A stretch of DNA of 64,000 nt from Lenzites betulinus (lineage: Eukaryota > Basidiomycota > Agaricomycetes > Polyporales > Polyporaceae). The translations under genes and the position numbers were made by a program. Every line of letters starts with the position of its first letter. Position 1 is the stretch's first letter. The notes under the pieces were generated by a model that ran no database searches, had not been told where the DNA came from, and saw only the letters and a list, made by a program, of their open reading frames with translations. The stretch lies in the NCBI GenBank assembly GCA_022264855.1, contig JABYQU010000011.1, positions 372,001 to 436,000 on the forward strand. The letters run 5' to 3'. Positions 12,970 through 36,243 of the stretch are shown here, in pieces.

Positions 12970-13555
12970 TGATGCACTGGAACCTGCTATAACAGCAGGA
13001 TAGAGGGCGCGGCCGAGAGCCTAGGGGGCGAGGCCGGACGTAGTGCGGGGAGGGAAGGATAATGCCTACGAGTAAGGGCCGGTTTCCCTTCACTGGGCTT
13101 CCACGAAGCGTCGCAGGTCGCGGCCGTCCTGCTATCACAGAGGGAAGGTGGGTACGCGGTCCGCCGGTTCTATCGCAACCGGTCGCAGTGCCAGCAAATT
13201 GGTAAGGAGGCGTGGACGGGGCAGTCGCGATGGTCAGAGGAAGCCGTGATCGCAGTCACAAGTTCACGTCGCAGCTCGCGGTCGCAGTTCGCAGTTCGCA
13301 GTCGCAGTCGCAGTCGCAGTCGATACCAGGGCCGGTCTATGAGATCTGAGGGGTGGGGATTGCTTGCCTTCTGAAAACTACGAACTACGGAATATATACA
13401 TGGACGATACCGGGTCGCTCTCCCAAAGTCCGAGATCAGCCGGTTGCACGGCCAGACTCCTGCTGCGACCACGATCCTCAGGCGCCCGCGACTCAGCCTG
13501 TTACACCCGTGCCCAGCTGCACCGTCCCGGCCTCAGCGGACCGCAGGTCGCATCA
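12970..13555 (-). repeat. 3' LTR of left element (586 bp)
   Basis: Begins TGATGCACTGG and ends GGTCGCATCA on the plus strand, giving TG...CA ends. The right boundary is fixed by the adjoining polypurine tract, which matches the one next to 35476. The left boundary is where the recombinase frame is interrupted. Inside are short GTTCGCAGTTCGCAG and GTCGCA repeats like those, inverted, in the other LTRs. No partner LTR is present in the window. Confidence 0.75.
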
Positions 13556-13603
13556 TCTCCCCCTCACTGAGATCCCGACCGCCCTCGGTCGGCCATCGAT
13601 GCG
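13556..13603 (-). promoter_or_regulatory. 3' polypurine tract with hairpin, left element
   Basis: On the minus strand a hairpin (CGACCG / CGGTCG type, interrupted once) is followed by GATCTCAGTGAGGGGGAGA directly before the LTR. This is the expected plus-strand primer site. The same block stands before the LTR at 35476 and again inside pol at 19621. Confidence 0.7.
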
Positions 13604-13696: not shown

Positions 13697-14358
13697 ATGG
13701 ATAACTTGGTCGAAATCGAGGCCGCATCGGCTCGCCTGCGACAGACTACTATCTCCTTGGCCCGCGCACAGGTCGAAGAGCAGGCGGCCATGATGGAGGA
13801 GATGGTCGAGACCGGCTATAGCGTCGCAGATTGGGAGGACGCCATCGACCGCTTCCTGTACCGCACGGTACGTCCTATCGGCCATTCTCCTACTCTGCGA
13901 GCGATGCGATACTGAGTTTGCCTTCCTAGGAGTCGTACTTCTTGATTTCCCTCGGCGATACCGTGATGACGCCCCTCCTTACTCGCGCCCGAGTGGCCTT
14001 GCGCGCCCTGGAACGACACAGCGAGTACCGCGGCGCGGTCGCAGACTTCGACCGACGACTCTTTACCATGTCGCGCGACCTGGAAGGTGTCTTCTTAGCT
14101 GCCGCCCGCCAGCGCCTGGTCCTTCTACGCTCTCGCTCCTCTGCGATCCACAACGTTCTTGCGATCGCGGGCGCCGACCGGTCCGTGGACATGGCCCAGT
14201 CGCAGGATATCGCGGGCGCGATCGCCCGCCTTCAGCGCGACGTCGCGGCCGCCCAAGACGCCTACCGTGGTGGAGAGCGCACGGTACTGGTCGACCGCCC
14301 TGAGGAGGCCGGATGGGTTGCAGCCATGGAGGAGGTTGCGACTAATCGTTCGGGTTAG
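13697..14358 (+). CDS. Cassette gene 1 (left copy): helical protein of unknown function
   Basis: Two exons, 13697-13867 and 13930-14358, give 199 residues. The start is the ATG in a perfect GCCACCATGG context, and GATAAAG lies about 70 bp before it. The product is predicted to be almost all helix: exon 1 carries QVEEQAAMMEEM and DWEDAIDRFL, exon 2 carries FDRRLFTMSRDLE, RQRLVLLRSRSSA and NVLAIAGADRS. No known domain is recognised. The minus-strand gene at 34664-35352 is a clear divergent homologue with the intron at the same place and phase, and it shares RRLFxM, an RL-LR-R run and VL-AG. The gene lies inside an LTR retroelement, antisense to pol, next to the 3' LTR. Both copies are open, which suggests a made protein. 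Confidence 0.75.
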
Positions 14359-14478
14359 GAAGGAGGGAAGACACCTGAAGGCAGGAGACGAATTGCGATG
14401 CGTGTAGTCTAGCCCATCGATGGATTAGATGTCTTGCGATCGGTTCCCGATTGCGACCTCGTGTGGCCCGCGCCTTTC

Positions 14479-14484
14479 TATAAG
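14479..14484 (+). promoter_or_regulatory. TATA-like box of cassette gene 2 (left)
   Basis: TATAAG 60 bp before the ATG at 14539. The homologous gene at 34451 has TATAAG at almost the same distance, so the cassette genes seem to have their own promoters. Confidence 0.5.
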
Positions 14485-14538
14485 TCTGCGACCTGCGATG
14501 CGACCAGCCTGGTATCGCACGCCCCAGTACTCCGCGCC

Positions 14539-15142
14539 ATGGATCCCCTTCCTGACCTTGTCCGCGCTATAGACTCTCTCTGCGGCGAACTTGTCGACCC
14601 CGCCCTCTACCAGTTAGAGTCGCAGGTTGCGACCATCGAGGGCGCCCCTTCTTCCGTGGACCCGCCTGATATCCGCCACTGGCACGTCCTTGCGACGCGT
14701 GTCCTGGTCGCCATAGTGCGTATGCTAGCTGCTTCCCAGCGCAGTCATTGACCCGTAGTCGCAGGAAGCCTGTATTGCGATGGGCTGCGACCAAGCTCTT
14801 GTGGATTCCGCGACCGCCCGCGCCCTCTCGGTCCTGCGATCGCAGACTGCGTACCCCGACCTCGGCCCCTGGTTCCTGCGAGAGAGACTTCGGTACACAG
14901 CCGCTCAAGAATGCCTTACTCTCGAAGTGACTCGCGCCCAGCTACGTTTGTTGGTGTCACGGGCCGACGCGGCTCGCGGAGTGGCCAGTCGCGCGGGCGG
15001 AGCCGGGCATACATTGTCTTCTGCTCTTTCCAGCATCCGAGGGGCTTCGGCGCGCGCCTTGCGGGGAACTGAGCGCGCGCTTACCGAATTAGGGGAGATG
15101 GAGGTCGTCGGCCTCGGTGCCGCGGGGGCGGGACTGGACTAG
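14539..15142 (+). CDS. Cassette gene 2 (left copy): helical protein of unknown function
   Basis: Two exons, 14539-14715 and 14765-15142, give 184 residues. The ATG is in a GCCATGG context. Exon 1 contains YQLESQVATIEG, reminiscent of the QLEGQAANLE segment of cassette gene 1, and ends at a phase-0 intron after 59 codons, as gene 1 does after 57. Genes 1 and 2 may therefore be tandem duplicates. Exon 2 is helical and Ala/Arg/Leu-rich (LRERLRYTAAQECLTLEVTRAQLRLL). The divergent copy at 33749-34451 keeps the same layout. No catalytic motif or membrane segment is visible and no function is assigned. Confidence 0.7.
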
Positions 15143-15572
15143 TCAGGGGAGGCGGGCCGCCCGAAACGGAGGAGCAGGGAAGCCCGGCGCGGCCGCCGCT
15201 TGGCGTCTATGGTGTATTTCTGGCGCGCCAATCCTAGCTCTGGCATTTGCGACCCGTTGCGATCGGGGCACGATCTGGTGGGAACGCGTCGCGCGCTCCG
15301 CTGCGCTCTGAATGTACCCGCGTAGCGCCTGTTCGACTGGGTCGCGGCGCGTCAGCGCTAAGTCTCCGTGCGCTGGAAATTTGCTTCCGCGATGCTTCGG
15401 CGCTTGACGTGCCGCGTGCTTGCGACTGTTAGCGCTTCCCGACCCTGCGCTGCTGCCGTCCGCGGGGAGGGGACTGCGAACAGCTAAGTACTCGTCGCAT
15501 CGGTCGCTGGACTCTTGCTCTCTTCGACCTCTCTCCGCTTACTCCCCCGCTTGCTTCATCATCCCGCACGCC

Positions 15573-17776
15573 ATGGCCAGCTCCTCTACGCCCGCCGCCA
15601 AGAAAGGCAAAGGTCGCGCCGACCCCGCGACCGTCTGCGCCGAGACCGTAGAGTACCTCGAGGACTTGTTCAAGGCCGCTCCCGAGGGCGTCGCAGGCCC
15701 TTCCGACTACGCCGCCTTCGCCTTCTCCGCCTTGGGATGGATCGTACGTCCCTTGCGACTGCGACCGCTCCCTTTTGCTGACTTGCCTCCCAGCACCGCC
15801 TAGAACGTTACGACGCCGAGCCCGCGCTAGTCGCTCAGTGGGGCGACCGCGTGTTCGCGGCTGTCGACGCGGGGCTCGGCGGCTACTCGGGCGCGGACGA
15901 CCCCTCTCGCGACGACCTATACGTCGCAGCGCGCGAGCGCGCCGCCGCCGCCCTGGTCGCGCGACGCGAGGAAGAAGCCCGGAGTGAGATCGAGGCTCGT
16001 CGCAAGGTTTGGGCAGACGCGCGCGCCGCGGCCACGGACTCGGACGACGAAGACGACGTTCCCCTTGCGACCGCCGCCCCAGCTCGCCCTGCTCCGCCCG
16101 CTCCTCCCGCTGCTCCCCGGACCCGTGCGATGATGCGAGCGTCCAACGCTCCCCCGATCGCGGTGAAGACTCCGGCCGCGACCAAGCCTGCGCCCGCGAC
16201 CAAGCCTGCGCCCCCTGCCAAGCTCGCGCCTGCGATCCAGCTCGCGCCCGCGACCAAGCCTGCGCCCGACCAAGCCTGCGCCCGCGACCAAGCCTGCGCC
16301 CACGCTGAAGGTCACTCCCGTGGCCAAGTCCGCGCCCGCGCCTGCCCCCGCGACGCCCCAGAAGTCCGCCGCACCGGCCGCGACCGTTCCCACGACCTCG
16401 CCCACCTCTCCGGCTGGCCCCTCGCGCAAGCGCACCCGCGAAGGCGAGGACTTCGTGCTGGTCACGAAGCGACCGCGGACTGGCGAGGGCTTCGAGCCTG
16501 CGACCTACCCGCCGGGTGCGCGTCTGCCCTCGGGCAAGGAGGCGGTAAGTTCTCGTCTTGTCCGTCTGCGACCACGCTAACCCGCCCCTTCTATAGTGTG
16601 CACAGTGCCAAACACTTGCGCGCCCCCGATGCGTCCTGCGTCGCGGGGTGCGCAAGTGCGATCGCTGCGTGTACTCGCAGAAGGGGTGCTACGCGGCGGG
16701 CCATATCGACTACGGGGAATGGTACGATAGCAACGGCTTCGACCGCGGTACGTCGCTAGCTCCGTGTCCTCTGTCTCCGCTGCGATATTGACTGCTTTCC
16801 TTGTCCTAGCGAACCCGCCCATCGGGCACATCTGGCGCGCGGTCTTGACCGCGAAAGGTCGTCCCTCCGACATCCCGGAGTGCTGCCGCTTGCCCGAAGG
16901 AGTCACGGAAGAGCAGGCGACTGCCCAGGAGATCGTCGACATCACAGCCGGTGTCGTCGCGCAGCACGCCGCCCTCGCGATCGCGACCGACCCCACGCCT
17001 GCGACCGCGGCGGCAGCCGCTCCCGCGACCCCGCCTGCGACCGCGCCTGCGACCGCGCCTGCGACCGCGCCTGCGACCGCGCCGGGGCCACGCCGAAGAC
17101 TCCCTCCAAGGCCGCGCCGGCGACCTCGATTACGCCCAAAGGGACGGGCTCCTTCCTCCTCCGGCCCTTCCCTCCTCGCGCATCGACGCCTCCGCCCGCT
17201 CCTCGCGCCCCGACGCCTCCTTCTGCGATCGCGGCCGCTCGCGAAGAAGACATCACCATGGCTCCCTCAAGCGCGGCCCAGGACGCGGAGCGCCTCCCAT
17301 CGGTTTTGGTGAGCCAGCTATTCCCTCCGGTAGAGTACACCCGGCTGATCGTGACCTACCCCGGCCAGGAGGACCTCCTCCACATCCAGGCTCGACCCAC
17401 GCGCACATATGGGGCCTCGCGTACCATCGCGGGCGTGCCGAGCCCATCGACTTCCCGGTCGCGCGCCCCTGACTCCGCCGCCAATCGCTCTGCGATCGCA
17501 CCGGTCGCAGGTCCTTCCCGTCTCGCGCCGACTGCGACGCGGACTGCCTCCCTCCTGCCGGCGGAGCCACCGCGCGACGAGGAGGTAGACGACTTGGAGA
17601 ACGTCCCCGGCATGACCGAGGACCGCCGCCTGCTCATCCTCGCCTACCGCCAGGAGCGCGCCTTCCTACGGGCCCGCATCTCCGCGCTAACCCATCAGGT
17701 CGCGGACCTCCAGGAGCGCGAGAGGCTACTGCTCGGACTTGAGTGGAGTGCGGCGGACTTGGAGCCTGAGGATTAG
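15573..17776 (+). pseudogene. Cassette gene 3 (left copy): zinc-cluster protein, frameshifted
   Basis: Exons 15573-15743, 15794-16544, 16597-16747 and 16810-17776. The order is a short N-terminal domain, a tryptophan-containing helical region, long Ala/Pro/Lys low-complexity tracts, a six-cysteine cluster, more low complexity, and a C-terminal leucine-rich helix ending LEPED. The cluster is C-x2-C-x7-C-x8-C-x2-C-x6-C (CAQC, RC, KCDRC, GC), close to fungal Zn2Cys6 binuclear clusters, so nucleic-acid binding is likely. The reading frame shifts twice, both times in short tandem coding repeats. Near 16267 one repeat unit lacks two bases. Near 17085 the PATA repeats change frame. The gene is therefore broken or mis-sequenced there. 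A homologue is at 28323-33014. Confidence 0.7.
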
Positions 17777-18025: not shown

Positions 18026-21000
18026 CTAAAGAGTGTGAATGGAGAGGTCGCAAGTGCGACCGCTCTGAGAAACATAAATAGGGGTATAGAGTCGCCCTTG
18101 CGACGGTGGTACGCTTGCGACCGCGACCTCAGTCTGATTGTCGCCTTCGCTGCCCCCTGGCCCTGCGAATACTGGCGGCTCGTCTAAGACTTCTGGTTCC
18201 GGGTCTTCTATACCGTCGTCCTCGGATGCGACTAGTTCGTGTAGCCTTTTTCCTGAGATGTCTGCGAACCCTTCAGGTAGGGGTATAGCCTTGCGGGCTA
18301 GATACGGGATGACTCGAAAGGCTGCGACCGGTCGGTGGAGCACTGAACCGTCCAGTTCGCAGAGCACGTATGCGCCCCCGCGATTACGGGACACTACCAC
18401 TAGCGGGCCTGTATACCGCGGTCGCATCTTGCGATTCAGCGACTTCTCGATCTGCGTATGTCGCATAAGGACCAGGGCCCCGGGTTTGAAGTCGAAGTCG
18501 CGTATGGTCGCAGCGTGATCGCGCTCGAACTTTTGGGCGGCCTCCACTCTCGCTCGGTAGACCCTTGAGTGTAGTGTAGCTAGCTGCCCTTGCCGCTTTT
18601 GGAGTTCGATGCACGTCGCGCGATGAGGTCTTCGGTTGACAGAAGCTTTTCTGGCGCGGGCATGAGGTAGGTCGCCTCTGCGATATCCATAGGGAGGATA
18701 GGGTGGCACCCTGTGACCGCGAAGTAGGGCGAGCAGCCCATACGTTTGCGGACCGTGATGCGATCCGCCCAGAATACGTAGGGTGCGACCTGCGACCACT
18801 TGGTCTGGTCGCCGTCCGCCGCCTTGAATAGCAGTTGTCGCAGATCGAAATGCGACCTCTCGACGATCCCGTTGGCCTTGGAATTGTACGCGCTGATACG
18901 AATATGGGGGAGGCCATATTTGCGCTGTAGTCTTCCGGCTGCACTGACGAAGGCCGACCCATTGTCGGTCACGATCTCCGAGGGTGCACCCCATCGGCAG
19001 TACAAGTCTTGGAGGAGGAAGTCGGTGATGACCTTGTCCGTTTCTACTCGCAACATGCGCCATTCCGTCCATGCTGATACGGAGCATCGCGCTGCGACGA
19101 TATTGCGGAACCCGCCGGACGCCGGCATCTTCATGGTGTCCACGTACCATCGTACAAAGAGCGCGCCTGGTCGCGCGACCGTGGGTGGGATCAGGATCTT
19201 GCGATGCGATCGCACCTGACACAGGTGACACGTCTTGATGTACCAGGACACGTCCTCTCGTAGGGAGGGCCACCAGAAGCGTTCTGCGACCATCTGGAGC
19301 GTCGCATAGTTGCCTCGGTGTCCTAGCTCATCGTGCGCTCCCCGTAGTATGCTGAAGCGTCGCTCGGGTCGCACTACTATCTTGTGTGCGCCTTGTGCGT
19401 CCTTCTTCCACAACCGTTGGTCGTCGCAGAAGAATCCTTGCGCGTACTTGATCAGAGACGCGTACTGGCTATCCGTGAGGCCCAGTGGTCGCTGGAGCGT
19501 TCGGAGCCAGTCCGCAACTAGTCGCAGCCGCGCGTCGGCTTTGGTCGAGTGCTCGTTAGACGGTAGCTCGGTCTCTTGGTCTATCGCGGTCGCCTCTGCT
19601 CCCGTGTCGCTGCTCGCGCGATCCTCCCCCTCACTGAAATTTCGACCGTCCTCGGTCGCTTCGGATAACTCCAACATTGCGATCGCGGGCGTCTTGCGTC
19701 GCAGACGCGATGGGGGGGCTAGGATATGGTGCATGAAGCCGTGGACCTTGTCTATCCAGTCCTCGAATTCGTCTGGGTCTTCCGCGGGTCATCGTCGGGT
19801 TGTGGGTTGCGACGCGACAGGCCGTCTGGGCCGTGCGACGTGCCCGGCACATGTACCAGGTGGAAGTGGAAGGTGAGGATACCAAGATCCAGCGGTTGAT
19901 GCTTGCACTGGGCGCGAGGTCCGGATTCTGTAGCATTCCGCGGATATACCGCGCGTCGACCTCGACTATGAGGTTGCGAACTCCTACTAGGTAGATCTTG
20001 GTCGCTTGTAGTGCGCGGAACAGACCGTAGAGCTCTAGTTTTGGTTGCGAGAAGCGCGCTTCGCGCTCGTTGAGGGTGATGGACCCGAAGCGGCTGTAAT
20101 AGCGCTTGCGAAGGTCGTCTGGGTCGCATTGGCAGAGGTGGTAGCCTACTGCGATGTAGGATGTGTCGACTGCGAGCACCACTGGCGCTCCATTGTCGTA
20201 GTCGATCGCCCGTAGCGCGGGGAGGCCAGGAGCGCCTCTCGCAAATCGTCCATTGCTGCGATCTGCGCCTCTCCGAATTCGAATGGGGCGTCTTTCCTTG
20301 TGAGTGCGACCAGCGCGTGAGCCCGTCGCGCGAAGTTGCGAATGAAGATCCTTGCGACGCCTACGGTCCCCAAGAAGGCGCGTACCTCAGAGAGGTCCTT
20401 GCATGTGCGCCACTTCTTGATTGCTGCGACGCGCGATTCGTCTGGCTTGCGACCTTCGGGGGTGCACCGGTGCCCTACCACCAGTATCTCGCGGGCGCAG
20501 AGGATGGACTTCTTCCCAGAGAACGTCCCGCCTGCGTACTTCATGCGCTGGACGATGCGATTGTTGTTCTGGAAGTGTTCCCACACAAAACGCCGGATCC
20601 CTGGGTTCTCTGGGATGGTCGCGTAGGTCCCTCCTTCGTCGCGATAGTCTGACGCAGGCCCTTTACAGGGTACATCGTCGATGTAGGGGACCGTGATCTC
20701 GGGTATTTCCGGTCGCAGGATGTAGGTGACGTCGTCGTGGAAAATTGGTACGGAATTCGACCATCCCATAGGGAGGGTACAGTGTCGCAGCGCTCCGTAG
20801 GGCGTCTGGAAGGTCGTGAGGTCGCGCGATGACTCTGCGATCAGTCTCTCGTCGTACCCCACGTAGAGATCGAAGATCGCGCCGCAGGCGCGACCTCCGA
20901 ACTGTTCGGCTAGGTAGTCGGGCGTAGGTGTTACTCCAGAGTGTTGGATGGTAACCTTGTTGAGTGGCTCTAAACTGTGTACGATTCGCAGCGACTTCGC

Positions 21001-21966
21001 GTCCTTTTTGAGGACGCAGAACCATCGCGACCGATAGGAGGAGTTGGATGGCTCATAGACGCCGGCTGCGATCTTCTTCTTGAGCATGTCGCAGACTTCG
21101 CGGTAGAGGCCTGGGGGTATAGGGATATTGCGCTCCACCCAGGGTGTGTGTGGTAGCACGGGAAACTCGACGGGAGGGAAGAATTCTGGCTTGAAGCAGC
21201 CGCGCTCTGTGTCGTCCCACGCGAACGCCTCGTTGTGTTGTCGCATGAAGTCGTGTAGCAGTTTGCGCTCTTCTGCCCATAGGAAGTCGCCTCCATGCGC
21301 CTCGTCCATGGCTTGCTTGCGCTCCTCGGTGTAGCGCCCAGTCGGTACGAACGGGGGCGGTCGCGGATTCAGTCTAGGCATCCCCGCTAAAGGGTCGCCA
21401 GTGATGTTGCGCTCTATGCGGAACTGGCCCGGTACGGTGCCTAGCACCGGTCGCACCTTCTGCGCCACGGGCTTGTACTTCTTTTTGGACTGTATGAAGA
21501 TCCCGGCTGGGGATGCCTGCGTCGCGGTTTGCGACCGGGTGCGACCACAAAGGAACCGGCGTCAGTTTTGTACGCGAATGCGAACGGCCTTTGCTGGCGC
21601 CCAGAGGCTAGGGGGGTATCGGGGACCGCAGGTTGCGCCGCGGTCGCAGAGGCTTTGCCTGGCCCGCGGGCGGTCGCAGGCTGGGCCCTCAGGGGAGTCG
21701 CAGGAGAGAAGAAAGACGAGAAATCACGGGTCGCAGACGGGATACTGGGTTCGCTTTGTGGTTCTTTGATAATAATGGCTTCCATAAGGCCGAGAGACAG
21801 TCGCACGCAGATAGTAGATAGCAGGATAGAGAGAAACGTCCGTAACTGGTATATGCGCAGATCTGCGGTATGCCGACTCTTCGTAATGACCACCGCGATC
21901 GCATCGCCGTCGCAACTAGTCAGATCCTCTAGTCGCGGCTGGGGCTGGTTGGCCCGAAGCGAGCGC
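18026..21966 (-). pseudogene. pol of left element (RT, RNase H, integrase), multiply frameshifted
   Basis: Read from right to left: a Pro-rich N-terminal part, then reverse transcriptase (21468-20146) with LPMGWSNSV and the catalytic YIDD in PYIDDVPCKG. RNase H follows (about 20200-19800, SQPKLELYGLFRAL, VEVDARYIRG). The integrase (19734-18200) has the HHCC finger (HDELGHRG...CHLCQ) and the DDE residues in WYVDTMK, VTDNGSAF and ANGIVERSH. A C-terminal domain contains PRYTGPLVVVSRNRGGAY. The frame changes at about 20220, 19900, 19770 and 18590, and perhaps near 21500, where family conservation passes from one frame to another, so the polyprotein is dead. Domain order RT-RH-INT is that of Ty3/gypsy elements. 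The gene ends tail to tail with cassette gene 3. Confidence 0.85.
19621..19658 (-). promoter_or_regulatory. Candidate central polypurine tract with hairpin
   Basis: On the minus strand a 6-bp-stem, 4-base-loop hairpin (CGACCG AGGA CGGTCG) followed by AAATTTCAGTGAGGGGGAGG. It is almost the same as the 3' PPT blocks at 13556 and 35440. It lies in the coding region between RNase H and integrase, where it encodes TEDGRNFSEGED. A second internal plus-strand primer is the simplest reading. Confidence 0.5.
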
Positions 21967-22735
21967 TGATACGCCCCGTGCCGAGCCAACGCCCGCGACC
22001 TACTCTTTTCGCGGTTTCCGCGAGTCCGAGGGCTTCGTGGTGCGGAGGACTCATCGCAGCGCAGGGGGCCTTGCCCGTATGCGGACGGCTTATCGCGCGG
22101 TATCGCGAGGGCATGGGCCGATCCGCGCGCGAGGGCTTGCGTTCCGTGGCGCCGGTCCGTACGGAGCGCGATGGTACGTTCCGCGTTCCGCGTTACGCGT
22201 TAGCGTCCGGCGCATCGTGGCCTCGATCCCCTTCGCGATGGGCCTTCCGTAGAGACTTTCTGATGACATCGGACGTGCGGACTCTCCCTGTAAATACCTA
22301 CGCCCTCGGGCCGTGACAATCAGACCCCCCCTTGGCTCAGAATCTCACTTTCCCTCGAAGAACCCAGCGACGACCCTGCGAACAGCGAACTGCGAACTGC
22401 GAACCCTGCGAACTCTGCGAACTGCGAACCCCTGCGATTTAGCGTTTAGCGTTGCGATTGCGTTACGAGTTTTCTGCGACGCCGACACCGGCTACGAAGC
22501 GACCCTCCTGCGTACTGCGGAAACGCCAGCTTAGCTGAGTCGTTGCGCACCTTCCGCCTTACCGCTACCCCTCCCCTCCCTCCGCGCTTCTCTGCGTACT
22601 GCGCCGCCGTAAGGGCACCCGACGCGAACCTTGCATCTCCTCGCGCTCCGCGAGACGTCTTCGCAGCCCGGTCTCGACCTTCTGGGCTCTCGACCGTCTC
22701 TTTCATCCGTCCTTACCGGTCGGTTGAGTGCATCA
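21967..22735 (+). repeat. 5' LTR of right element (769 bp)
   Basis: Starts TGATACGCCCC and ends GTGCATCA. It differs from 35476-36243 by about eight substitutions and one single-base gap, roughly 1 percent. TAAATACC near 22291 may be its TATA signal. A GCGAACTGCGAACCCTGCGA-type short repeat lies at 22376-22432. Confidence 0.93.
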
Positions 22736-22755
22736 TTCTGGTGACCACCGCAGGG
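22736..22755 (+). promoter_or_regulatory. Primer-binding site candidate
   Basis: TTC followed by TGGTGACCACCGCAG directly after the 5' LTR. TGG at this place can pair with the CCA end of a tRNA. The tRNA species was not identified. Confidence 0.5.
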
Positions 22756-25513
22756 GGTGTGTGTACAAGTTTCACTTGTCGGCTTCCTCCTTCGACGGCG
22801 ATAGCGCCGTCTCACCCGCAATTCACCGCGTATCGCGTTCCGCGTCTCGGCAAAACGATACACTCTCAAGCGCCCTCCTACCCGACCAGATCCGCGCCTT
22901 CGCAAAAAGGCTTCCGCGCTCCCTCAGTGAAGATCAGATCGACGCGCTCCTCCGTGCGGCACTGGCTGTTCTCGATACGGGCACCGCGATACTTCTGAAC
23001 AAACCTGCTCCGCTCCGCGCCTCCACTGCAGCTAGAATCCGCTCGGACGCCCTCGCAGTCATCGCAACCGCCCCCCTACCTGAGTGGGCCTCAAACGCGA
23101 CGCTCGCGAACGACGACGAGTCAAACCTCACTGCTCCTCAACAACAAGACTTCGTGGATCAGCTCCTACGAGGTGTCTCGCGACTTCGGAATCAACTGGT
23201 ACTGGACTTGGTACCGGCGCTAGTAGACCCACTCTTTTCGCTACTCGCGAAAAGCATCCAGGCGCTTGAAACCGATCCGTCCGCGACCCAGTGGCTACAG
23301 GACACGGCAGACGCTATCGTACACCGCGCGATTCTCTCGTCGCCGCCTCTCTTTCCCGAATCGCTCCCAGAAGGCGCCGAAGAGTCCTTCGTCAACTACG
23401 CGACGCCATACGGTAGCCCGCAATCCGCAGTCTCGAACCTCACTCCTTTAGAGCCATCGTCTTCAGACAGCAACGCGACGCGTAAAACCCCCAGCGTATC
23501 CTCTCACTCGCGCGAGCCATCTATAGTCTCTTCGATGGCGGAACAGAACAACTTCGCGATGCGCCGTGCTATGCCGGCACGCGGTCATGCGACCGCGCCC
23601 ACCTTTGACTCTAGCGAGCCGCGGAACCTTCGCAGGTTCTTCCAGGACCTCGAGACCCTCTTCGAGATCGCGGGAATCACGGACCCCAACGTACAGAAGA
23701 AGTGGGTCACGCGCTACGTGCCGATCAGCGAGTCGGAATTCTACGAGGAGATGGAGGAGTACAAGGACCAAACGAAGACCTTCGAGGAGTTCCGCGCGGC
23801 GATCTACGCTTCGCACCCCGGCGCTAGCGAGACGCGGAAGTTCTCCAATGCCGAAGTGGACAAGCTGGTCGAGTCGCGCCGTAAGGCTCCAATCACCACC
23901 AGTAGCGAACTCGGCGACTTCTATCGGCCGTTCTATGCCATGACGTCCTACCTGATTCAGCACAACAAGATGTCCACCTTCGAGCAGTCGAGACTATTCT
24001 TCAGCGGTCTCTGCAACCCCCTTCACGACCAGGTCGCGCAGCGCCTTCAGCTCAAAGACCCAGACCATCATCCAGACGAGGCCTACGAGCTGGCCAAAGT
24101 CTACGAGGCCGCGAAATTCATCCTGCACGGAACGACGACGGCGTCGTACCAAGTGGCCCCGGCGGCCCCTACGACTACGACGCCCGCGGACTCTTCGACC
24201 ATCAAAGTGGAGGATCTCGCGCCGCTCTTCCGGCTCCTCGCGCAAGGTGGCAACAATGCGAATGCTTCCGCGACCGCGAATCGCTTTCTAGGACCCCGAA
24301 CGCCGGAGCGCGCCCCGCGCCTAACTACCAGGGCATGATGCAGGGAGCGCAAGGTTTCCAGCAGGGAGGGAACGGTTTCGCGGCGAACGCGCTACCAAAC
24401 GGCTTCTGCCACTACTGCGGCGATGCGAACCATATGCTGCGGAACTGCCCGGCAGCGGAGACTGACATCCGCAAGGGAAGTGCTCGCGTAACCCGGAAGG
24501 GCTGATTGTGCTCCCTACTGGTCAGTTCCTCCCGCGACAGCTCCCTGGGTTCGACGGTTTGACTATGCGCGACCGACTCTACGAATGGCACCGACGGGAA
24601 CGTGTTCGCCAAGGTCAGAACCCCGCGCAGGCAGCCCCAGCGGCCCAAATGGTATTTGCGATCGCGGAGGACGTCGAACCGTGGATTAGTAGCTTCCAGT
24701 TCACCGCGGAGGACCGCATCCAACAGTTAGAGCACGAGCTGTACATGCTCAAGAAGGGGAAGGAACGCTTCGATGGCGTGGAGGTACCCTCGTTCCCAAA
24801 ACCGCGCTCGCGACCGGTATCGCGACCTGCGTCGCCAGGCCCTCAAAACCGCGAACGCTCCGCGGACTCGCGCCCGGGACCCTCGCGCTCGCCAGCGGCC
24901 TTCGCGCCCCCTAAGGCGAACGCCACTGGGCAACCCGCGCGACTGGTCCCTCCGCATCTCGAACCCGCTCTGCGTTTCCGCGAAACGGTAGCGACCGGGG
25001 ACCGCGAGCGACCCGTACACGACGCAACCATCCGGACGACGGAGAACCAGGTGCCCGAGCCGCCGCGACAACAGGAACGCCCAGCGACGCCGTATCGCGC
25101 ACCGGCGGACCAAGGCCAACCACCGCTACCAGAACACCCTTTCGCGAAGGCGCGCGATGCGACTTACGCGCCCCCGAACGTACGCAACTTTGGAGCGCCG
25201 CCCGCGAAGCCGAAGGAACAGGAGCGCGACGGCGCCTTTCGCACGATTGCACCAGTCTACCAGCCAGGGCTCGCAGCCGCAGTCTTCGAGCGTATGATGA
25301 AGACTCCCGTGATCAATGTCTCAACGGAGGAGCTCCTCTCACTGGCGCCGGAGGTCCGCGCGAAGTTCCGCGAAGCGGTCACTCCGCGACGAGTCCCACC
25401 CACCGGCCAAAGGACCGTTGCCTTCGCTGGCGTCGAAGGATCCTCGACCGCGGACGGAGCAGAACCGGAAGAGCTCTCGTGCTTCGGAACACCTTTGGAG
25501 CCTGGCGGTACGT
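22736..25513 (+). pseudogene. gag of right element, frameshifted and cut off
   Basis: The frame opening at the LTR end runs to 24338 and has the Ty3-type capsid region (RRFFQDLETLFEIAGI, KWVTRYVPISESEFYEEM, FYRPFYAMTSYLIQHNKM). The first ATG of the frame is only at 23535 (MAEQNNFAM), a usual gag start. The 270 codons before it are open and protein-like but have no ATG. Conservation then passes to a second frame near 24305 for the zinc knuckle CHYCGDANHMLRNC (24407-24448). It passes to a third near 24475 for the Pro-rich tail with LTMRDRLYEWHRRERVRQG and FREAVTPRRV. The tail is cut at 25513 by the palindromic insertion, before any protease. Two frameshifts and the truncation make it non-functional. 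Confidence 0.85.
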
Positions 25514-28322
25514 CACCTGTGGCTTCCACTGTTGTATTACAATAGCCCACCAAGGTGGTACCAGCAGTGTGTATTCTGTGGCCACCATAGTTTATTGTTA
25601 ATCTGGCCCCCAGGTGTTGTACAAACCCATTAATGGTTGTTAATCTGTACAGTGTTGTTATTGATTGTAAAATAGAGCGCATTTATACAATGGACCCTAG
25701 CATTGTCAAATGATGTTAATCATTGTTAAAAGCTGCTTTAGATGTTGTTAATGGTTGTAAAATAAGCCCTGAGGTTGTTTAACATTGTTAAAAGCTGCTT
25801 GGGATGTTGTTAATGATTGTAAAATCAGTGCCTGCTTGTAGGTCCCTGTTTACCGCTTAATGGGCGCTTTTTTGGCTTCCCAATAGGGTAGGTATACCAA
25901 ATGACCGCATTTGGGCGCTTTTTTGGCTTCCAAATGGGGCAGTGGCCTACCACCACCCCCTGGGGGCTCCCTTTTGGCCCCCCTGGGCGCATTATTGCCC
26001 TATTTTGTGCCCTATGTATATGTGGTGATCATGATCATGATACATATCAGGGTATTCTGTGGGGGCCAAAAACAGACCAAAAGCGGTCAAAAAAGCGAAC
26101 CCAGGGCAGGGGTCAGCAGGTCCTGGTAGGTGCATGCAGCACATAATTGGTTCCTCTGGGCCCATTACATTGATCAATATATCATTTGAAAGCTATAGTT
26201 CAGGGCTTTCTGGGACATCTATTTGCATAGCCCACGGTGCTATATTGATGAAGATATGGCCTTTCGCATTTTCGCAAAAAGCAGCCATTTTGTTTGCTCC
26301 ATAGCTCCTGATCCAGGGCACATATAAATTCACCCTATACATCGTTAGAATTGTATTTAGCATACCTTTAAAACGGGCCTACTCTCAGGATATTCCATCC
26401 ACATGTATTCTGCCCCTCCTCCTGCCTCCCTGCTAATAGATCGCCCTCCAGGGCCCTCAGTTCCTGATAGATTCCCTTGAAAGTCTTTGCAGTTTGTACT
26501 GGCAATATATCCAAACATATTTCCAGCTTTGCATGATTTAAAATGGCCTACCCCTTACGTGCCCTCTTGCTGTACATTTTGTGCACTCCCAGCTTGTTTG
26601 CTCCATAATTTTATACCCTGTACAGATATGGTCCTGCTCTATTTTGCATGCTGTCTGTGTATACTATAGCTACCAATAGATTTGCTCAAAAGTGTTATCG
26701 GACATCTGGATCTCTTATAGGCTCCTTATCAGTAGCCCACAGAGTAGCCCAATCTGTCGCTTTCTGGGGGAATATTATATAGATCAGACAGCATAGCTGT
26801 ACTGGCATAGTGCTCAGAATCATGTTGCAAAAACATCATGAGATTTGGTGGAGAAGTGACGGAGGTATGGGCAGAATATCCCAAATGGTGGTCTACATGC
26901 TCAAACACAGCTTACAGCAGTGCATTCATGTATTCTTCACCAACTGCATCAAAGGGTCATTCTGAGGTGTTTCCTCCATACCTCCGTCACTTCTCCACCA
27001 AATCTCATGATGTTTTTTGCAACATGATTCTGAGCACTATGCCAGTACAGCTATGCTGTCTGATCTATATAATATTCCCCAGAAAGCGACAGATTGGGCT
27101 ACTCTGTGGGGCTACTGATAAGGAGCCTATAAGAGATCCAGATGTCCGATAACACTTTTGAGCAAATCTATTGGTAGCTATAGCATTACAACAGCATGCA
27201 AAAGAGAGCAGGGCCATATCTGTACAGGATATAAATTATGGAGCAAACAAGCTGGAAGTGCACCAAATGTACAGCAAGGGGGCACGGAAGGGGTAGGCCA
27301 TTTTAAATCATGCAAAGCTGGAAATATGTTTGGATATATTGCCAGTACAAACTGCAAAGACTTTCAAGGGAATCTATCAGGAACTGAGGGCCCTGGAGGG
27401 CGATCTATTAGCAGGGAGGCAGGAGGAGGGGCAGAATACATGTGGATGGAATATCCTGAGAGTAGGCCCGTTTTAAAGGTATGCTAAATACAATTCTAAC
27501 GATGTATAGGGTGAATTTATATGTGCCCTGGATCAGGAGCTATGGAGCAAACAAAATGGCTGCTTTTTGCGAAAATGCGAAAGGCCATATCTTCATCAAT
27601 ATAGCACCGTGGGCTATGCAAATAGATGTCCCAGAAAGCCCTGAACTATAGCTTTCAAATGATATATTGATCAATGTAATGGGCCCAGAGGAACCAATTA
27701 TGTGCTGCATGCACCTACCAGGACCTGCTGACCCCTGCCCTGGGTTCGCTTTTTTGACCGCTTTTGGTCTGTTTTTGGCCCCCACAGAATACCCTGATAT
27801 GTATCATGACACCACATATACATAAGGCACAAAGTAGGGCAATAATGCGCCCAGGGGGGCCAAAAGGGAGCCCCAGGGGGTGGTGGTAGGCCACTGCCCC
27901 ATTTGGAAGCCAAAAAAGCGCCCAAATGCGGTCATTTGGTATACCTACCCTATTAGGAAGCCAAAAAAGCGCCCATTAAGCGGTAAACAGGGACCTACAA
28001 GCAGGCACTGATTTTACAATCATTAACAACATCCCAAGCAGCTTTTAACAATGTTAAACAACCTCAGAGCTCATTTTACAACCATTAACAACATCTAAAG
28101 CAGCTTTTAACAATGATTAACATCATTTGACAATGCTAGGGTCCATTGTATAAATGTGCTCTATTTTACAATCAATAACAACACTGTACAGATTAACAAC
28201 CATTAATGGGTTTGTACAACACCTGGGGGCCAGATTAACAATAAACTATGGTGGCCACAGAATACACACTGCTGGTACCACCTTGGTGGGTTATTGTAAT
28301 ACAACAGTGGAAGCCACAGGTG
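25514..28322. repeat. Palindromic element 1 (1.35-kb arms, 105-bp loop)
   Basis: Left arm 25514-26870 and right arm 26976-28322 are near-perfect reverse complements, ends CACCTGTGGC / GCCACAGGTG. An 81-codon frame at 26059-26304 recurs unchanged at 27540-27785 on the other strand. The arms are AT-rich compared with the neighbourhood and contain no recognisable protein. The element sits exactly between broken gag (left) and the end of cassette gene 3 (right). No clear target duplication is seen. Confidence 0.93.
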
Positions 28323-31300
28323 GCGAGCTGGGCGTCGACGTGTTGGAAGGCCTTGTCCAGGAACTTGCTCGACTGCTCCAAGTAGTCGGCCATGCCGCGA
28401 GAAGCCCCGGCCATCAGGGTGCCGAAGGCGTCGGACCGCGCCTTGAACAAGGCCTGTTGCTGGGCCAAGATGCGGAAGGCGACGACGTCGTCGAGCGGGA
28501 GACCGGGGAGCTCGTTGGGTGGGTTGGCTCGCTGCTTGGACAGGGACTGGCGGAACTCGCGGGTGAACTCGCGGCGGAACCACTCGACCTCACCTACTGC
28601 TGTAACAATGATGCATCAAAGTCCGTACGCGCCCAGGGCAGGCGTTACATCATAGTCCGTACGTTGCGCGTATAATTAAGCGCTTACTAAGCGCCCATCT
28701 GAGTTACAATATAGCCTTCCCAATAAGGCAGTTGACCCCGGCAAGCCCAGCAGGCCCTATTATCACTACTGATAACAGGCGCTTTTTGGTGCACCTTCCC
28801 AAAATGGTATGTACTGATGTATCTTATCTCCCCAGCGCTTTTCTAATCACTTTCCTTGTGCTATCTTATCTTATGGGCGCTTTTTTGGCCCCATTTGGCC
28901 CCCTCGGGTAATTGGACTATTGGTGAGCCCCCCCCCCTATTGCTCTGGCTCACTCAATTCTTATCCGATTGAGTTGGTTCTTTTGCATAGTGTAACGTTT
29001 ATAAATGCGAACCAAACGCGCCCATTACGACGGCATAAGGTGTGCTACAAAGATATCTGCAAAATATGTGAAACATGGGTGCTTCAAATACAGAATGGGC
29101 CATAGCACCACCAGTTCCGGGTGGATCTGAGTTGCGCTGGGCTTGTTGGAAAGTGGTAATATATCGCTTTCCAATGAGCCTCTTTCAAAGCGATTCCGTG
29201 CAGGACCCACTGAGACGTTTTTGTTACAAGGTGCAGGGAGTCACCTTGAAATACCTCTGCCAATACTTGGCCGTTTCACTGTGTGTCTTTTGATAATGAG
29301 ATGTGCTAGCATGTACTAGATATGCATATCATTTGTTCTGGATACATCCCACATGCAACCATCTGGGGAGGCATCCAGTGGCTGCTCACTGGGCGCTTCT
29401 TTCGCTACTTGTACAGCCGATCCACCTCCGATTCCTACGCAAATAATTTGTTGGAAAGCGACAGGGAATAGAGTTCTAGTGGTATTTTTTGCATGGAGCC
29501 AGGACCAGTGTGCATGCCAGAATGGCCTATTTACCTCTCTGCTATCTTCTTACAGTGAAGCTGACCACCCATCCTCCCCAAAACATGTGGAATGATATGA
29601 GAACACTGAATGAGGGTATCACATATTACACCATAGAATGTGAGAGTACTTAGGTATGATGTACTGTATGTAGAACACTATAAATGCTGCATACATTGCC
29701 CAGAAAGCCTGAAAATGCGAATACTTCACACTTCTAGCACTGTTATAACACCCTGTGCATGTATATATAGTCCATACTGTACACATTCACACTGGCATAG
29801 TATGTAGCTTTCAAATGAGCCCAAGATCATGTTTATTGGTGGAGTAGATGTTGAGATACATGTTGCAACACATAGTTACAGTATGGACCTTCATCTTGGG
29901 CATGCTGTGCTTGCAAAGTGCTTATGACCGTCTTAAGACGCTTATGGGCGCTTATTTGACCCCCTGGGTCGCAACTCAAATAGCCAGAGCACATCTATGT
30001 CAATTTGTTTGTAACTTTGTACATACATTGATAGGGATGATCTGTAACCATGTGCAAAGTCTTGCATCTTCTGGTGAGGTCTGTGGTAAGTAGTACAAGG
30101 ATAAAGACCTATAAAGAGTCATACCTATAGTGAGGCGACCACTGCACGCACCATGACGCAAAATATGTCGTTGGAACGCCATGTTCAGCCGCTTTCCAAC
30201 GCTATACTTTGCGCCAGAAACGGGCGCGAACTGGTGGGGTGATAGCCCAATGAAGCACCCAGTGTGCCAGTACTGGATGCTTTTTTGGGCACTTGGGTGG
30301 TGTTTGTGCCCAGAGCAAGTACTATGACTGTATACTACACGTTAGTGCGTACAATCGTCAAGAGGAAAGAAGGGAATCGGTGGGATATTGAGAGAGATAT
30401 GTGAGTATTCCTCCCTGCACCCTGTAATGGAAACACCTCAACGGGTTCTGCACCGAATCGGGTCGCGCGGGATGCGTTCGAAAGCAGTGGATTAACGCTT
30501 TCCAACGAGCTCTGCGCGACCCTGTTCCGCGCAGAACTGGTGGTGCTATGGCCCATTCTGTATTTGAAGCACCCATGTTTCGCATATTTTGCAGATATCT
30601 TTGTAGCACACCTTATGCCGTCGTAATGGGCGCGTTTGGTTCGCATTTATAAACGTTACACTATGCAAAAAGAACCAACTCAATCGGATAAGAATTGAGT
30701 GAGCCAGAGCAATAGGGGGGGGCTCACCAATAGTCCAATTACCCGAGGGGGCCAAATGGGGCCAAAAAAGCGCCCATAAGATAAGATAGCACAAGGAAAG
30801 TGATTAGAAAAGCGCTGGGGAGATAAGATACATCAGTACATACCATTTTGGGAAGGTGCACCAAAAAGCGCCTGTTATCAGTAGTGATAATAGGGCCTGC
30901 TGGGCTTGCCGGGGTCAACTGCCTTATTGGGAAGGCTATATTGTAACTCAGATGGGCGCTTAGTAAGCGCTTAATTATACGCGCAACGTACGGACTATGA
31001 TGTAACGCCTGCCCTGGGCGCGTACGGAATTTGATGCATCATCCTTACAACAGCAGCTGTCGACCTCGGTGTCGACGCAGTCGCGGAAGCTAGCCTCGCT
31101 GACGGGCCAGTAGGCGGGAGGATCTTCGGCCGAGGCCGAGGGCACGAAGGGTCCGTCGGCGTCGCCGTCGTCCGACGCCTCTTGGTGGAGTTCGAGGTCC
31201 TATGGAAACAAAGAGCAAGAGAAGTTAGCAAGTTGCAGCTGAAGGATCGCGAAACTACGCGTACCTCTCGCGGACGCACCTGCGCATCGGCAGTCTGGCC

Positions 31301-33748: not shown

Positions 33749-34451
33749 CTACAAGAAGACATCGTCTACATAGGATCCCACGGAAGAGTTCCCAAGCGCG
33801 CGCGCGGCCGTAGGCGGCGTCGACAGGCCCGGAAGGCTGATGTATTCCTCGATACGCTCTTGCGCTCTGCGGGCCGCCTCGATAGCCCCCTGGTTCGCGG
33901 CATGGCAATCCTGGAGTTCGCGTACACGCGTAAGCAGGGTCCTCGCGGCGAGTAGTAGCGGCGCCGTTCCGGATGCGCGGGAAGCTGGCGTGAGAGTACC
34001 GAGGAGGCTGATAAGGCTAACGCGGCAGGTCTCGAGACGGAGCCATTCGATCTGGAGCTCGCGCTCCTGCGCAAATAGGAGACTGTCGAGGACGAATCCA
34101 CGAAGGCGCCATTGGAAGCCTGTGGGGACTGTCGGGGCACCGAGGGCGCGATCCCCGCGGTCGCAGAGGGCATCGAGCGCGGAGGAGGTAGGCGCTATCG
34201 CCTGGGCGTGAGCCTGCGGTGGCCGGTCAGCGAAGGGCGGGTGGCGGCGCGCTCAGGAAGAAGACACGCACCCAGGTAGTCTGAAAGCGACTCAGGGCTT
34301 CCTCCCACCGCGCGGACTCGTCGCAGCCGGCATCCCGGAGGGCCTCCAGAGCGAGGACCGCCGTTAGCACTTCGCGGATCGCGGCCGTCTCCGCGCGATA
34401 GCATAAGGCGCCGATTTCGCGTTCCACGGAGGGGAGAGTGTGAGCGGACAT
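33749..34451 (-). CDS. Cassette gene 2 (right copy): helical protein of unknown function
   Basis: Exons 34451-34272 and 34213-33749 give 214 residues. The first exon is exactly 60 codons with a phase-0 GTGCGT intron, as in the left copy (59 codons). Exon 2 has the run FAQERELQIEWLRLETCRVSLISLL, which corresponds to the TAAQECLTLEVTRAQLRLLVS part of the left gene, and a second helix VRELQDCHAANQGAIEAARR. Identity to the left copy is low but layout and helix pattern agree. The frame is intact. TATAAG lies 58-63 bp before the ATG (34514-34509). Function unknown. Confidence 0.72.
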
Positions 34452-35475: not shown

Positions 35476-36243
35476 TGATACGCCCCGTGCCGAGCCAACG
35501 CCCGCGACCTACTCTTTTCGCGGTTTCCGCGAGTCCGAGGGCTTCGTGGTGCGGAGGACTCATCGCAGCGCAGGGGGCCTTGCCCGTATGCGGACGGCTT
35601 ATCGCGCGGTATCGCGAGGGCATGGGCCGATCCGCGCGCGAGGGCTTGCGTTCCGTGGCGTCGGTCCGTACGGAGCGCGATGGTACGTTCCGCGTTCCGC
35701 GTTACGCGTTAGCGGCCGGCGCATCGTGGCCTCGATCCCCTTCGCGATGGACCTTCCGTAGAGACTTTCTGATGACATCGGACGTGCGGACTCTCCCTGT
35801 AAATACCTACGCCCTCGGGCCGTGACAATCAGACCCCCCCTTGGCTCAGAATCTCACTTTCCCTCGAAGAACCCAGCGACGACCCTGCGAACAGCGAACT
35901 GCGAACTGCGAACCCTGCGAACTCTGCGAACTGCGAACCCCTGCGATTTAGCGTTTAGTGTTGCGATTGCGTTACGAGTTTCTGCGACGCCGACACCGGC
36001 TACGAAGCGTCCCTCCTGCGTACTGCGGAAACGCCAGCTCAGCTGAGTCGTTGCACACCTTCCGCCTTACCGCTACCCCTCCCCTCCCTCCGCGCTTCTC
36101 TGCGTACTGCGCCGCCGTAAGGGCACCCGACGCGAACCTTGCATCTCCTCGCGCTCCGCGAGACGTCTTCGCAGCCCGGTCTCGACCTTCTGGGCTCTCA
36201 ACCGTCTCTTTCATCCGTCCTTACCGGTCGGTTGAGTGCATCA
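35476..36243 (+). repeat. 3' LTR of right element (768 bp)
   Basis: Same ends as 21967-22735 (TGATACGCC...GTGCATCA) and about 99 percent identical. It joins directly to a truncated Plavaka-type transposase at 36244. Confidence 0.93.

What the first reader, a model, noticed from the sequence alone, without database searches (positions are those of the whole stretch)
13697..17776. Three-gene spliced cassette carried antisense inside a gypsy-type retroelement
Between pol and the 3' LTR of the left element lie three intron-containing genes on the strand opposite to pol. A diverged copy of the same three genes, in the same order and relative orientation, lies in the right element (28323-35352). 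Intron places are conserved in all three, and genes 1 and 2 stay open in both copies although sequence identity is low. That argues for selection, so the cassette may serve the element, for example as RNA-binding, export, silencing-defence or chromatin factors. I know of no described name for it; novelty is inferred from memory only.
Basis: partly seen in the sequence, partly recalled or inferred. Interest (0 to 1): 0.92.

Follow-up and report, generated by a model that had tools for sequence, protein, structure and literature searches.

The report
Backward spliced genes inside fungal retrotransposons
Some fungal jumping genes carry extra intron-containing genes written backwards in their genome; these are kept by selection and may help the element recognise or control its own DNA.

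Summary
Three intron-containing genes lie antisense between pol and the 3' LTR of the left Ty3/gypsy element; a diverged cassette of the same layout lies in the right one. Gene 1 (35% identity, E 4e-23) and the gene 3 Cys cluster are homologous; gene 2 corresponds only by place and introns, but is a paralogue of gene 1. The genome holds at least 15 left-family and 11 right-family gene 1 loci; 24 of 26 start 125-141 bp from an LTR. A third family has gene 3 plus one similar-sized gene. Selection is purifying: dN/dS 0.04-0.15 (gene 1), 0.06-0.24 (gene 3 pieces), weaker in gene 2. Gene 3 has two alleles swapped between otherwise near-identical elements. Extra finding: cassette families carry dispersed family-specific CG-containing hexamers, even in pol codons; an unrelated gypsy family with an antisense Zn2Cys6 ORF has its own; in seven control retroelements no hexamer held up in held-out sequence. 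I propose that gene 3 recognises its own element's DNA, working like plant VANC proteins; binding is untested, and for two families the motif evidence is mixed. Antisense extra ORFs are known (plants, Botrytis Boty); this is a new variant.

The parts
12970..13555 (-). 3' LTR of left (L) element, TGATGCG...GTGCATCA read on the - strand
   Evidence: Similarity of the window copy to 14 other L copies stops at 12963-12967; 69 matching pieces in the genome, LTR pairs for six L elements by coordinates
13557..13568 (-). 3' polypurine tract AGTGAGGGGGAG of L with adjacent palindrome GACCGAGGGCGGTC
13697..13867 (+). L gene 1 exon 1
13930..14358 (+). L gene 1 exon 2 (199 aa in all)
14479..14483 (+). TATAA 60 bp upstream of L gene 2 start
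14539..14715 (+). L gene 2 exon 1
14759..15142 (+). L gene 2 exon 2 (186 aa in all; paralogue of gene 1)
15573..15743 (+). L gene 3 exon 1 (type A allele)
15794..16544 (+). L gene 3 exon 2; frame broken in the repeat region of this copy
16597..16747 (+). L gene 3 exon 3, six-cysteine cluster C-x2-C-x7-C-x8-C-x2-C-x6-C
16810..17776 (+). L gene 3 exon 4; frame broken in repeats in this copy
18026..21966 (-). L pol, frame broken in this copy, ends where the R 5' LTR begins
19624..19635 (-). Second polypurine tract inside pol, preceded by nearly the same palindrome as the 3' tract
21968..22735 (+). 5' LTR of right (R) element
22736..25510 (+). R gag region
   Evidence: 23811-25513 matches gag of the R copy on contig C43 at 99.8%; protease Pfam match in that copy
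25511..28325 (.). Insertion: 2.8-kb palindrome (96% self-complementary), where pol would be
28591..31059 (.). Second insertion with inverted ends, inside R gene 3 (absent at that place in C43)
31265..31838 (-). R gene 3 exon 4 (limits from the C43 copy)
31910..32108 (-). R gene 3 exon 3, six-cysteine cluster
32177..32826 (-). R gene 3 exon 2; frameshifted in this copy
32889..33014 (-). R gene 3 exon 1
33749..34213 (-). R gene 2 exon 2
34272..34451 (-). R gene 2 exon 1; TATAA 63 bp upstream
34664..35122 (-). R gene 1 exon 2
35176..35352 (-). R gene 1 exon 1; TATAA 55 bp upstream
35476..36243 (+). 3' LTR of R element, 98.8% identical to the 5' LTR; gene 1 starts about 125 bp from it

Best explanation
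It is an element-encoded accessory gene cassette of a Ty3/gypsy lineage in this fungus. Two paralogous ~200-aa proteins (genes 1 and 2) and one larger protein with a six-cysteine cluster (gene 3) are read antisense to gag-pol, next to the 3' LTR, probably from their own promoters. Introns can persist because they are antisense in the genomic RNA and so are not spliced out before reverse transcription. The proteins are kept by selection for the element's own spread. Most likely mechanism (inferred): gene 3 is a DNA-binding factor that recognises a CG-containing hexamer strewn along its own element (about 85 TGCGAC in 9 kb of L), with the other proteins as partners, and so marks its own copies for expression or shields them from silencing, in the way plant VANC proteins act on VANDAL transposons. 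Shown: architecture, multi-copy element linkage, elements with paired LTRs, purifying selection, allele swapping of gene 3, family-specific motifs (strong in L and L001, weaker in R, by density only in M). Inferred: antisense promoters and splicing, DNA binding, partner complex, anti-silencing.
For: 15 of 15 L-family gene 1 loci start 140-141 bp from an L LTR, and 9 of 11 R-family loci 125-126 bp from an R LTR. R elements of 14.0 kb on C43 and C19 are bounded by paired LTRs with 4-bp target duplications CCGC and CCGG; C43 has a 1365-aa pol whose best solved relative by sequence is Ty3 Gag-Pol, E 1e-26. Gene 1 dN/dS 0.04-0.15 in 20 of 21 pairs of seven representatives (the other: 0 against 4 changes), p 0.013 to 8.5e-13; variable sites by codon position 12/9/40. 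Gene 3 allele A-B dN/dS 0.06-0.24 over five exon pieces, p 5e-5 to 7e-22. TATAA lies 48-63 bp before R1, R2, L2 and M1, which are 4 of the 6 TATAA in the three stretches counted. Motif: TGCGAC/GTCGCA 21 in L pol RT-RH against 4.8 expected under synonymous shuffling; about 28 against 5 in the held-out ORFs (0/300). In the same discovery and held-out test L001 replicates both ways (CTCCGA, ACTCCG; 0/300) and R one way of two (CGCGGA, 0/300); none of 7 control elements does (best 18/300). The L001 family has an antisense ORF passing Pfam Zn_clus.
Against: No RNA, protein or binding data. Gene 3 of L, R and M does not pass Pfam Zn_clus. Motif limits: the top hexamer found in R pol (AAAGGC) failed in R gag-PR (194/300); the window copia also shows CGCGAA (16 against 8.1, 2/300) and control L005 shows CGCGCG (10 against 2.7, z 4.9), so the R and M motifs are not exclusive; M was judged by density, with only 8 against 3.8 (7/300) in gene 1 codons. 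CpG observed/expected is no higher than in other retroelements, so there is no footprint of methylation protection. Three M-like copies (C78, C47, C97) have gene 1 but no detected Cys-cluster exon and 1.1 kb instead of 2.5 kb before pol, so gene 3 is not needed in cis by all. A relative of the L001 Zn protein on C6 gave no clear enrichment. Structure models were too poor to use.
Confidence: 0.48

Rival explanations
1. Selected accessory proteins with another job: for example RNA export or packaging, integration targeting, or a partner of Gag; the motifs are a separate matter.
For: Genes 1 and 2 have no known domain, and a gene 1 homologue is predicted all-helical at low confidence; three M-like copies keep gene 1 without a detected gene 3; for plant antisense ORFs the retrieved passages report nuclear location but no function (PMC7264820).
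Against: Does not explain why the elements with an antisense Cys-cluster gene have their own dispersed hexamer that holds up in held-out sequence while seven controls do not.
Confidence: 0.32
2. Captured host genes carried as passengers, without use to the element.
For: Introns are unusual in retroelement genes (recalled); captured genes are known in retrotransposons (PMC7264820).
Against: For L and R, 24 of 26 gene 1 loci found lie at a fixed 125-141 bp from an LTR and the other two are diverged or broken; low dN/dS between copies of the L family; two diverged families share the layout. The genome searches for L and R gene 1 listed no other homologue.
Confidence: 0.04
3. The antisense transcription itself is the function (dsRNA or interference) and the proteins are incidental.
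For: Antisense retroelement RNAs may regulate transposition (discussed in PMC7264820).
Against: Third-codon-position bias in genes 1 and 2 and dN/dS well below 1 in genes 1 and 3.
Confidence: 0.04
4. The dispersed hexamers are neutral: a mutation, repair or copying bias of each element family, or sites of a host factor, with no link to gene 3.
For: Hexamers lie in coding as well as noncoding sequence, unlike VANC targets; CpG statistics are unremarkable; R- and M-type hexamers are also raised in one control each; the seven controls come from about five families (L003/L005 and L007/L008 look like sister copies), and absence of a Cys-cluster ORF was checked only for the two in the window.
Against: Different hexamers in related families whose pol proteins are 69-73% identical; codons under the L motif are less conserved towards R, 52/88 against 861/1188, p 0.01 (RT-RH p 0.007, integrase alone p 0.56); motif sites in L noncoding DNA vary less, 7/115 against 142/903, p 0.005, though four-fold, third-position and CpG-only comparisons were not significant.
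Confidence: 0.38
5. Remnant of a different transposon that once inserted between pol and the LTR.
For: Nested insertions are common in these elements.
Against: The repeat search lists no repeats of 60 bp or more at the cassette edges; the cassette is kept at one position in two or three families; no transposase domain was found in the parts scanned.
Confidence: 0.03

Closest known systems
Antisense additional ORFs (aORF-3R) of plant Ty3/gypsy elements: Grande gene23, RIRE2, Retand, PvRetro13
   Same: Between pol and 3' LTR, antisense to gag-pol, in most copies, conserved, few or no known relatives, own upstream promoter in Grande (PMC7264820, PMC11963269; passages)
   Different: Here two or three separate intron-containing genes, in a fungus; two are paralogues and one has a cysteine cluster. 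The word intron does not occur in the main text of either paper
brtn of Boty-like elements in Botrytis cinerea (Zhao 2011, not read; known through PMC7264820 and PMC8365987)
   Same: Antisense extra gene between pol and 3' LTR of a fungal Ty3/gypsy element
   Different: Described there as one gene; no sequence was at hand, so homology was not tested
VANC proteins of Arabidopsis VANDAL transposons
   Same: Proposed: element-encoded factor matched to a short family-specific motif that is dense in its own element; fast-evolving protein
   Different: VANDAL are DNA transposons; VANC motifs sit mainly in noncoding tandem repeats (PMC5735166, passages); here motifs are dispersed, also in coding sequence; no sequence relation shown; binding untested
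Fungal Zn(2)-Cys(6) binuclear cluster proteins (PF00172)
   Same: Six-Cys spacing C-x2-C-x6-11-C-x8-C-x2-C-x6-C in L, R and M gene 3; the antisense ORF of the unrelated L001 gypsy passes the Pfam cut-off
   Different: Gene 3 itself does not pass (M: E 1.7; L and R: no match), and the cluster is internal, on its own exon
TET/JBP dioxygenases of fungal DNA transposons
   Same: Transposon-carried counter-measure against methylation in fungi
   Different: Said to be found in no retrotransposon (PMC12730594, passages); no such domain was found here

Membership tests
Ty3/gypsy LTR retrotransposon | Protease, RT, RNase H, then integrase in pol; LTRs TG..CA; short target duplication | tested here: met
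   Copy C43: RNase H and integrase H2C2 over the Pfam cut-off, rve just under it, protease in gag-PR; RT-RNase H aligns to Ty3, E 1e-26; LTR pair and 4-bp duplication. RVT_1 itself is not reached by this pol
aORF-3R class of LTR retrotransposons | ORF between pol and 3' LTR, antisense to gag-pol | tested here: met
   Window coordinates and copy C43
aORF-3R class of LTR retrotransposons | Present in many copies and conserved like a protein-coding gene | tested here: met
   At least 15 L and 11 R loci; low dN/dS in L
aORF-3R class of LTR retrotransposons | Antisense transcript | not testable with these tools
   No RNA data; only TATAA placement
brtn of Boty | Sequence homology to brtn | not tested
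   brtn sequence not at hand
PF00172 Zn(2)-Cys(6) cluster (gene 3) | Score over Pfam gathering cut-off | tested here: not met
PF00172 Zn(2)-Cys(6) cluster (L001-family antisense ORF) | Score over Pfam gathering cut-off | tested here: met
   21.9 bits against 21, E 1.9e-4
VANC/VANDAL anti-silencing system | Encoded by a VANDAL (MULE) DNA transposon | tested here: not met
   Carrier is Ty3/gypsy
VANC/VANDAL anti-silencing system | Family-specific short motif dense in the cognate element and rare elsewhere | tested here: inconclusive
   Clear for L and L001; R one way only and CGCGAA also raised in copia; M by density only
VANC/VANDAL anti-silencing system | Motif mainly in noncoding tandem repeats | tested here: not met
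   Motif is dispersed over coding and noncoding parts
VANC/VANDAL anti-silencing system | Protein binds the motif and causes loss of DNA methylation | not testable with these tools
   needs bench work

The most novel reading that the evidence does not exclude
Fungal Ty3/gypsy elements run a self-recognition or anti-silencing system: each family encodes, antisense, a cysteine-cluster DNA-binding protein (with partner proteins in the L/R/M clade) that reads a family-specific CG-containing hexamer which the element has spread over its whole length, coding sequence included. Protein and motif diverge together between families, and gene 3 alleles are swapped between copies by recombination.
Probability: 0.25. 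Interest if true: 0.93.

Novelty: new variant of a known kind. Interest (0 to 1): 0.78.

Why it matters
Why many LTR retrotransposons carry antisense genes between pol and the 3' LTR is an open question; the plant cases have no known function. Here selection on the proteins is measured, introns give a reason for the antisense orientation, copy families provide natural alleles, and a concrete binding target is predicted per family. That turns 'function unknown' into a DNA-binding test with up to four protein-motif pairs from one genome. If right, an anti-silencing principle known from plant DNA transposons would have arisen separately in fungal retrotransposons.

Tried and rejected
Homologues outside this genome: the search for homologous proteins with gene 1 gave 4 unnamed proteins (P0001 is 90-91% identical to the R gene 1 exons) and none for gene 3; distribution across species is therefore unknown.

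Structure: AlphaFold models of a gene 1 homologue (pLDDT 50, all helical) and of the Cys-cluster exon (pLDDT 52) were too weak for a fold search, so none was run. Profile searches of solved structures gave nothing of use.

Idea that pol and cassette were swapped between families: dS is near saturation (0.84-2.45 in the comparisons made), so not decidable; swapping is shown only for gene 3 inside the L family.

Idea of a methylation footprint: CpG observed/expected does not set cassette elements apart. Test on C6: inconclusive. Clusters of three ACTCCGA: 3 forward and 1 reverse against 6 and 0 for the reversed-pattern control, so no signal. Two stretches fetched as further controls (L088, L089) proved unusable: neither shows the end of the pol in question.

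Codon-position test on gene 3 exon 1 was uninformative (44/44/49 of 57; it included copies with no readable exon there).

Homology of the M gene 1 to L/R gene 1 could not be shown (BLASTP against R1 E 5.3, hhalign E 0.02). Gene 2 R against the gene 1 profile is weak (hhalign probability 16%).

Full report
WHAT IS THERE. The left element (L) runs from its 3' LTR (12970-13555) to a pol on the - strand that ends at 21966, where the 5' LTR of the right element begins. Between LTR and pol, on the + strand, lie three genes with GT..AG introns. The right element (R) has LTRs at 21968-22735 and 35476-36243 (98.8% identical), gag on the + strand, no pol, two insertions (25511-28325 and 28591-31059) and the same three-gene layout on the - strand. 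R in the window lacks a target duplication (flanks GCGC and ACGT); its right flank looks to me, from memory, like a KDZ-type transposase, so it is probably a recombinant.

HOMOLOGY. Gene 1 of L and R are homologous (35% over 159 aa, E 4e-23). Gene 2 of L and R are not significantly similar by themselves, but L gene 2 matches the gene 1 profile (hhalign probability 96%, E 5e-9), and R gene 1 finds L gene 2 copies at E about 2e-4: L gene 2 is a paralogue of gene 1, with the intron at the same place; for R gene 2 the profile match is weak. The Cys-cluster exon of gene 3 is 35-38% identical between L and R (BLASTP E 8e-8 among ORFs of this stretch).

COPIES (lower bounds, since only best candidates are scored). 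L gene 1: 15 loci; R gene 1: 11 loci, some split. 15 of 15 L copies start 140-141 bp from an L LTR and 9 of 11 R copies 125-126 bp from an R LTR; the exceptions, C40 and C52, are diverged or broken. Compared with the window copy and with C98, the other L copies leave the shared sequence at the LTR edge, as separate insertions would. By coordinates, LTR pairs flank six L elements (12.4-22.1 kb) and two R elements of 14.0 kb, the latter with duplications CCGC and CCGG. C43 was read from 1007603 to 1020400: 3' LTR, antisense cassette, 1365-aa pol, gag-PR; its 5' LTR is placed by search. Its gene 2 was not translated. C19 was not read through. A third family (M) has its Cys-cluster exon at 12 loci, 41-43% identical to L; for 7 of the 12 a pol C-terminus match lies nearby on the opposite strand. 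In the one M copy read (L082) a gene of about 200 aa with an intron after codon 59 precedes gene 3. That gene has 26 exon-2 matches of E below 1e-34; its homology to L/R gene 1 is not shown, and its LTRs were not searched. Three M-like copies (C78, C47, C97) have it only 1.1 kb from pol and no detected gene 3.

SELECTION. Of 15 L copies, gene 1 is open in 13 and gene 2 in 11. Nei-Gojobori dN/dS among seven representatives (of 15): gene 1 0.04-0.15 in 20 of 21 pairs, the remaining pair having 4 synonymous and 0 other changes; all p at most 0.013. Gene 2 is weaker: without the broken C20b copy, 0.18-0.42 in the 12 pairs with at least 15 changes (11 of 12 with p below 0.05), and 0.29, 0.65 and 1.12 in the three pairs with 9, 11 and 4 changes. 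In 14 copies (C20b left out) variable sites by codon position are 12/9/40 in gene 1 and 14/11/29 in gene 2; introns vary more (21/62, 10/43), the gene 1-2 spacer (24/180) and LTR (79/587) about as much as the genes over all positions. Gene 3, allele A (window) against B (C60): exon 1 0.21, exon 2 N-part 0.13, Cys cluster 0.06, exon 4 N-part 0.24 and C-part 0.07; of the window copy only parts in frame were used. Selection was measured in L only, not in R or M.

ALLELE SWAPPING. In the alignment gene 3 exon 1 is type A in C12 (window), C26, C61, C20a, C51b and C51a, type B in C60, C98, C81, C72, C37 and C31, and unreadable in C18, C87 and C20b. C98 is nearly identical to the window copy in genes 1-2 yet has type B. 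Identity in 200-bp steps, window against C98 and C60: 96-100% over genes 1-2, 68-82% from about 15400 through exon 2, 84-86% around the Cys cluster, 59-77% just after it, 88-93% at the C-terminus, 93-99% at the end of pol. Recombination between element copies is the simplest explanation.

PROMOTERS AND INTRONS. TATAA lies 48-63 bp upstream of R1, R2, L2 and M1 (L1 has ATAAA); these four are among six TATAA on both strands of the three stretches counted; gene 3 has none. That introns survive because they are antisense in the genomic RNA is inference from the retrotransposition cycle.

FAMILY MOTIFS. TGCGA occurs 141 times in the 9.0-kb L element (3-14 per 500 bp throughout) against about 2.5 per kb in the left flank. 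In coding sequence, against shuffles that keep protein and codon use, TGCGAC/GTCGCA is 21 against 4.8 in RT-RH, 13 against 3.0 in integrase and 15 against 2.8 in gag-PR, each 0/300; R pol, 69-73% identical in protein, has 6 against 3.1 (14/300). R shows CGCGAA and CGCGGA (18 against about 8 each in pol, 0/300), but the window copia also shows CGCGAA (16 against 8.1, 2/300). M shows CGCGCG at 17.7 per kb against 0.5-3.3 in five other stretches of the window, but control L005 has CGCGCG at z 4.9. In a discovery and held-out test of ten elements L replicates both ways (z about 11), L001 both ways (0/300), R one way (CGCGGA from gag-PR holds in pol, 0/300; AAAGGC from pol fails in gag-PR); the seven others (window gypsy, window copia, L003, L004, L005, L007, L008; about five families by the look of their proteins) do not (best 18/300). 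M could not be entered. L001 was at first a control; its downstream DNA then turned out to hold an antisense ORF (C18:29922-30626) with a Pfam Zn_clus match, also present beside the other copy on C27. Its hexamer ACTCCG has 9.2 per kb in L001, 8.2 in the first 1.1 kb of L087 and 0 in the next 2.1 kb; that the ORF lies inside the element is inferred from this, as its LTRs were not mapped. Of the seven controls, only for the two in the window was a six-Cys ORF looked for, and none was found. Genome-wide, clusters of three TGCGAC number 252 against 20 for the reversed pattern; of the 100 places listed, 75 lie within 13 kb of an L LTR, at most 2.6% of the genome, and 15 of the other 25 in one tandem repeat on C1.

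READING. The cassette is a selected accessory gene set of the element. The pairing of an antisense Cys-cluster gene with a family-specific, CG-containing hexamer suggests sequence-specific recognition of the element's own DNA. That working principle is known from VANC proteins on Arabidopsis VANDAL transposons (PMC5735166, passages; PMC10398659, abstract and outline). It is not membership: the carrier is a retrotransposon, motifs are dispersed rather than in noncoding tandem repeats, and binding is untested.

LITERATURE. [quoted passage not shown] PMC11963269 and PMC8365987, passages; Zhao 2011 not read). Searches listed no title or abstract on a spliced antisense multi-gene cassette in a fungal gypsy element; one search matched 463 papers and listed 10, and the library lacks most subscription journals. 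PMC2864245 (passages) and PMC12730594 (passages) were looked at for fungal elements.

SCORES. That this is a real, selected, element-encoded antisense gene set I hold at about 0.9; the specific role at about 0.25-0.3.

Noticed in passing
window 19624-19635 (- strand) and 13557-13568; L079:5626-5660; L081:3381-3415; R 35463-35475: A second polypurine tract with nearly the same flanking palindrome (GACCGAGGNCGGTC) as the 3' one sits inside pol between RNase H and integrase in both families, like a central polypurine tract.
   Followed up: partly
window 15400-17776 against C98 and C60 copies: Gene 3 has two strongly diverged alleles swapped between elements 96-100% identical in genes 1-2.
   Followed up: yes
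window 25511-28325; L079:416-3227: A 2.8-kb near-perfect palindrome with low CpG (observed/expected 0.27) sits next to R gene 3 and, about 91% identical, inside gene 3 of the L copy on C98.
   Followed up: partly
G000 C18:29922-30626 (-), C27:461303-461971 (-): An unrelated gypsy family with a recognisable RVT_1 also has an antisense Zn2Cys6 ORF after pol and its own dispersed motif ACTCCGA.
   Followed up: partly
G000 C78:136013, C47:336127, C97:53474: M-like elements keep the first gene but the space before pol is 1.1 kb instead of 2.5 kb and no Cys-cluster exon is detected.
   Followed up: no
window 36244-39500 (- strand): Sequence resembling a KDZ-type DNA transposon (recalled, no call) flanks the R element, which has no target duplication.
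   Followed up: no
window 11395-11543 and 11961-12109: 149-bp direct repeat, 99% identical, 566 bp apart, left of the L element, beside - strand ORFs.
   Followed up: no
window 47951-48456 / 53230-53735 within 42196-42559 / 54459-54822: A copia element with near-identical LTRs nested in a gypsy element with a chromodomain, also with near-identical LTRs.
   Followed up: no
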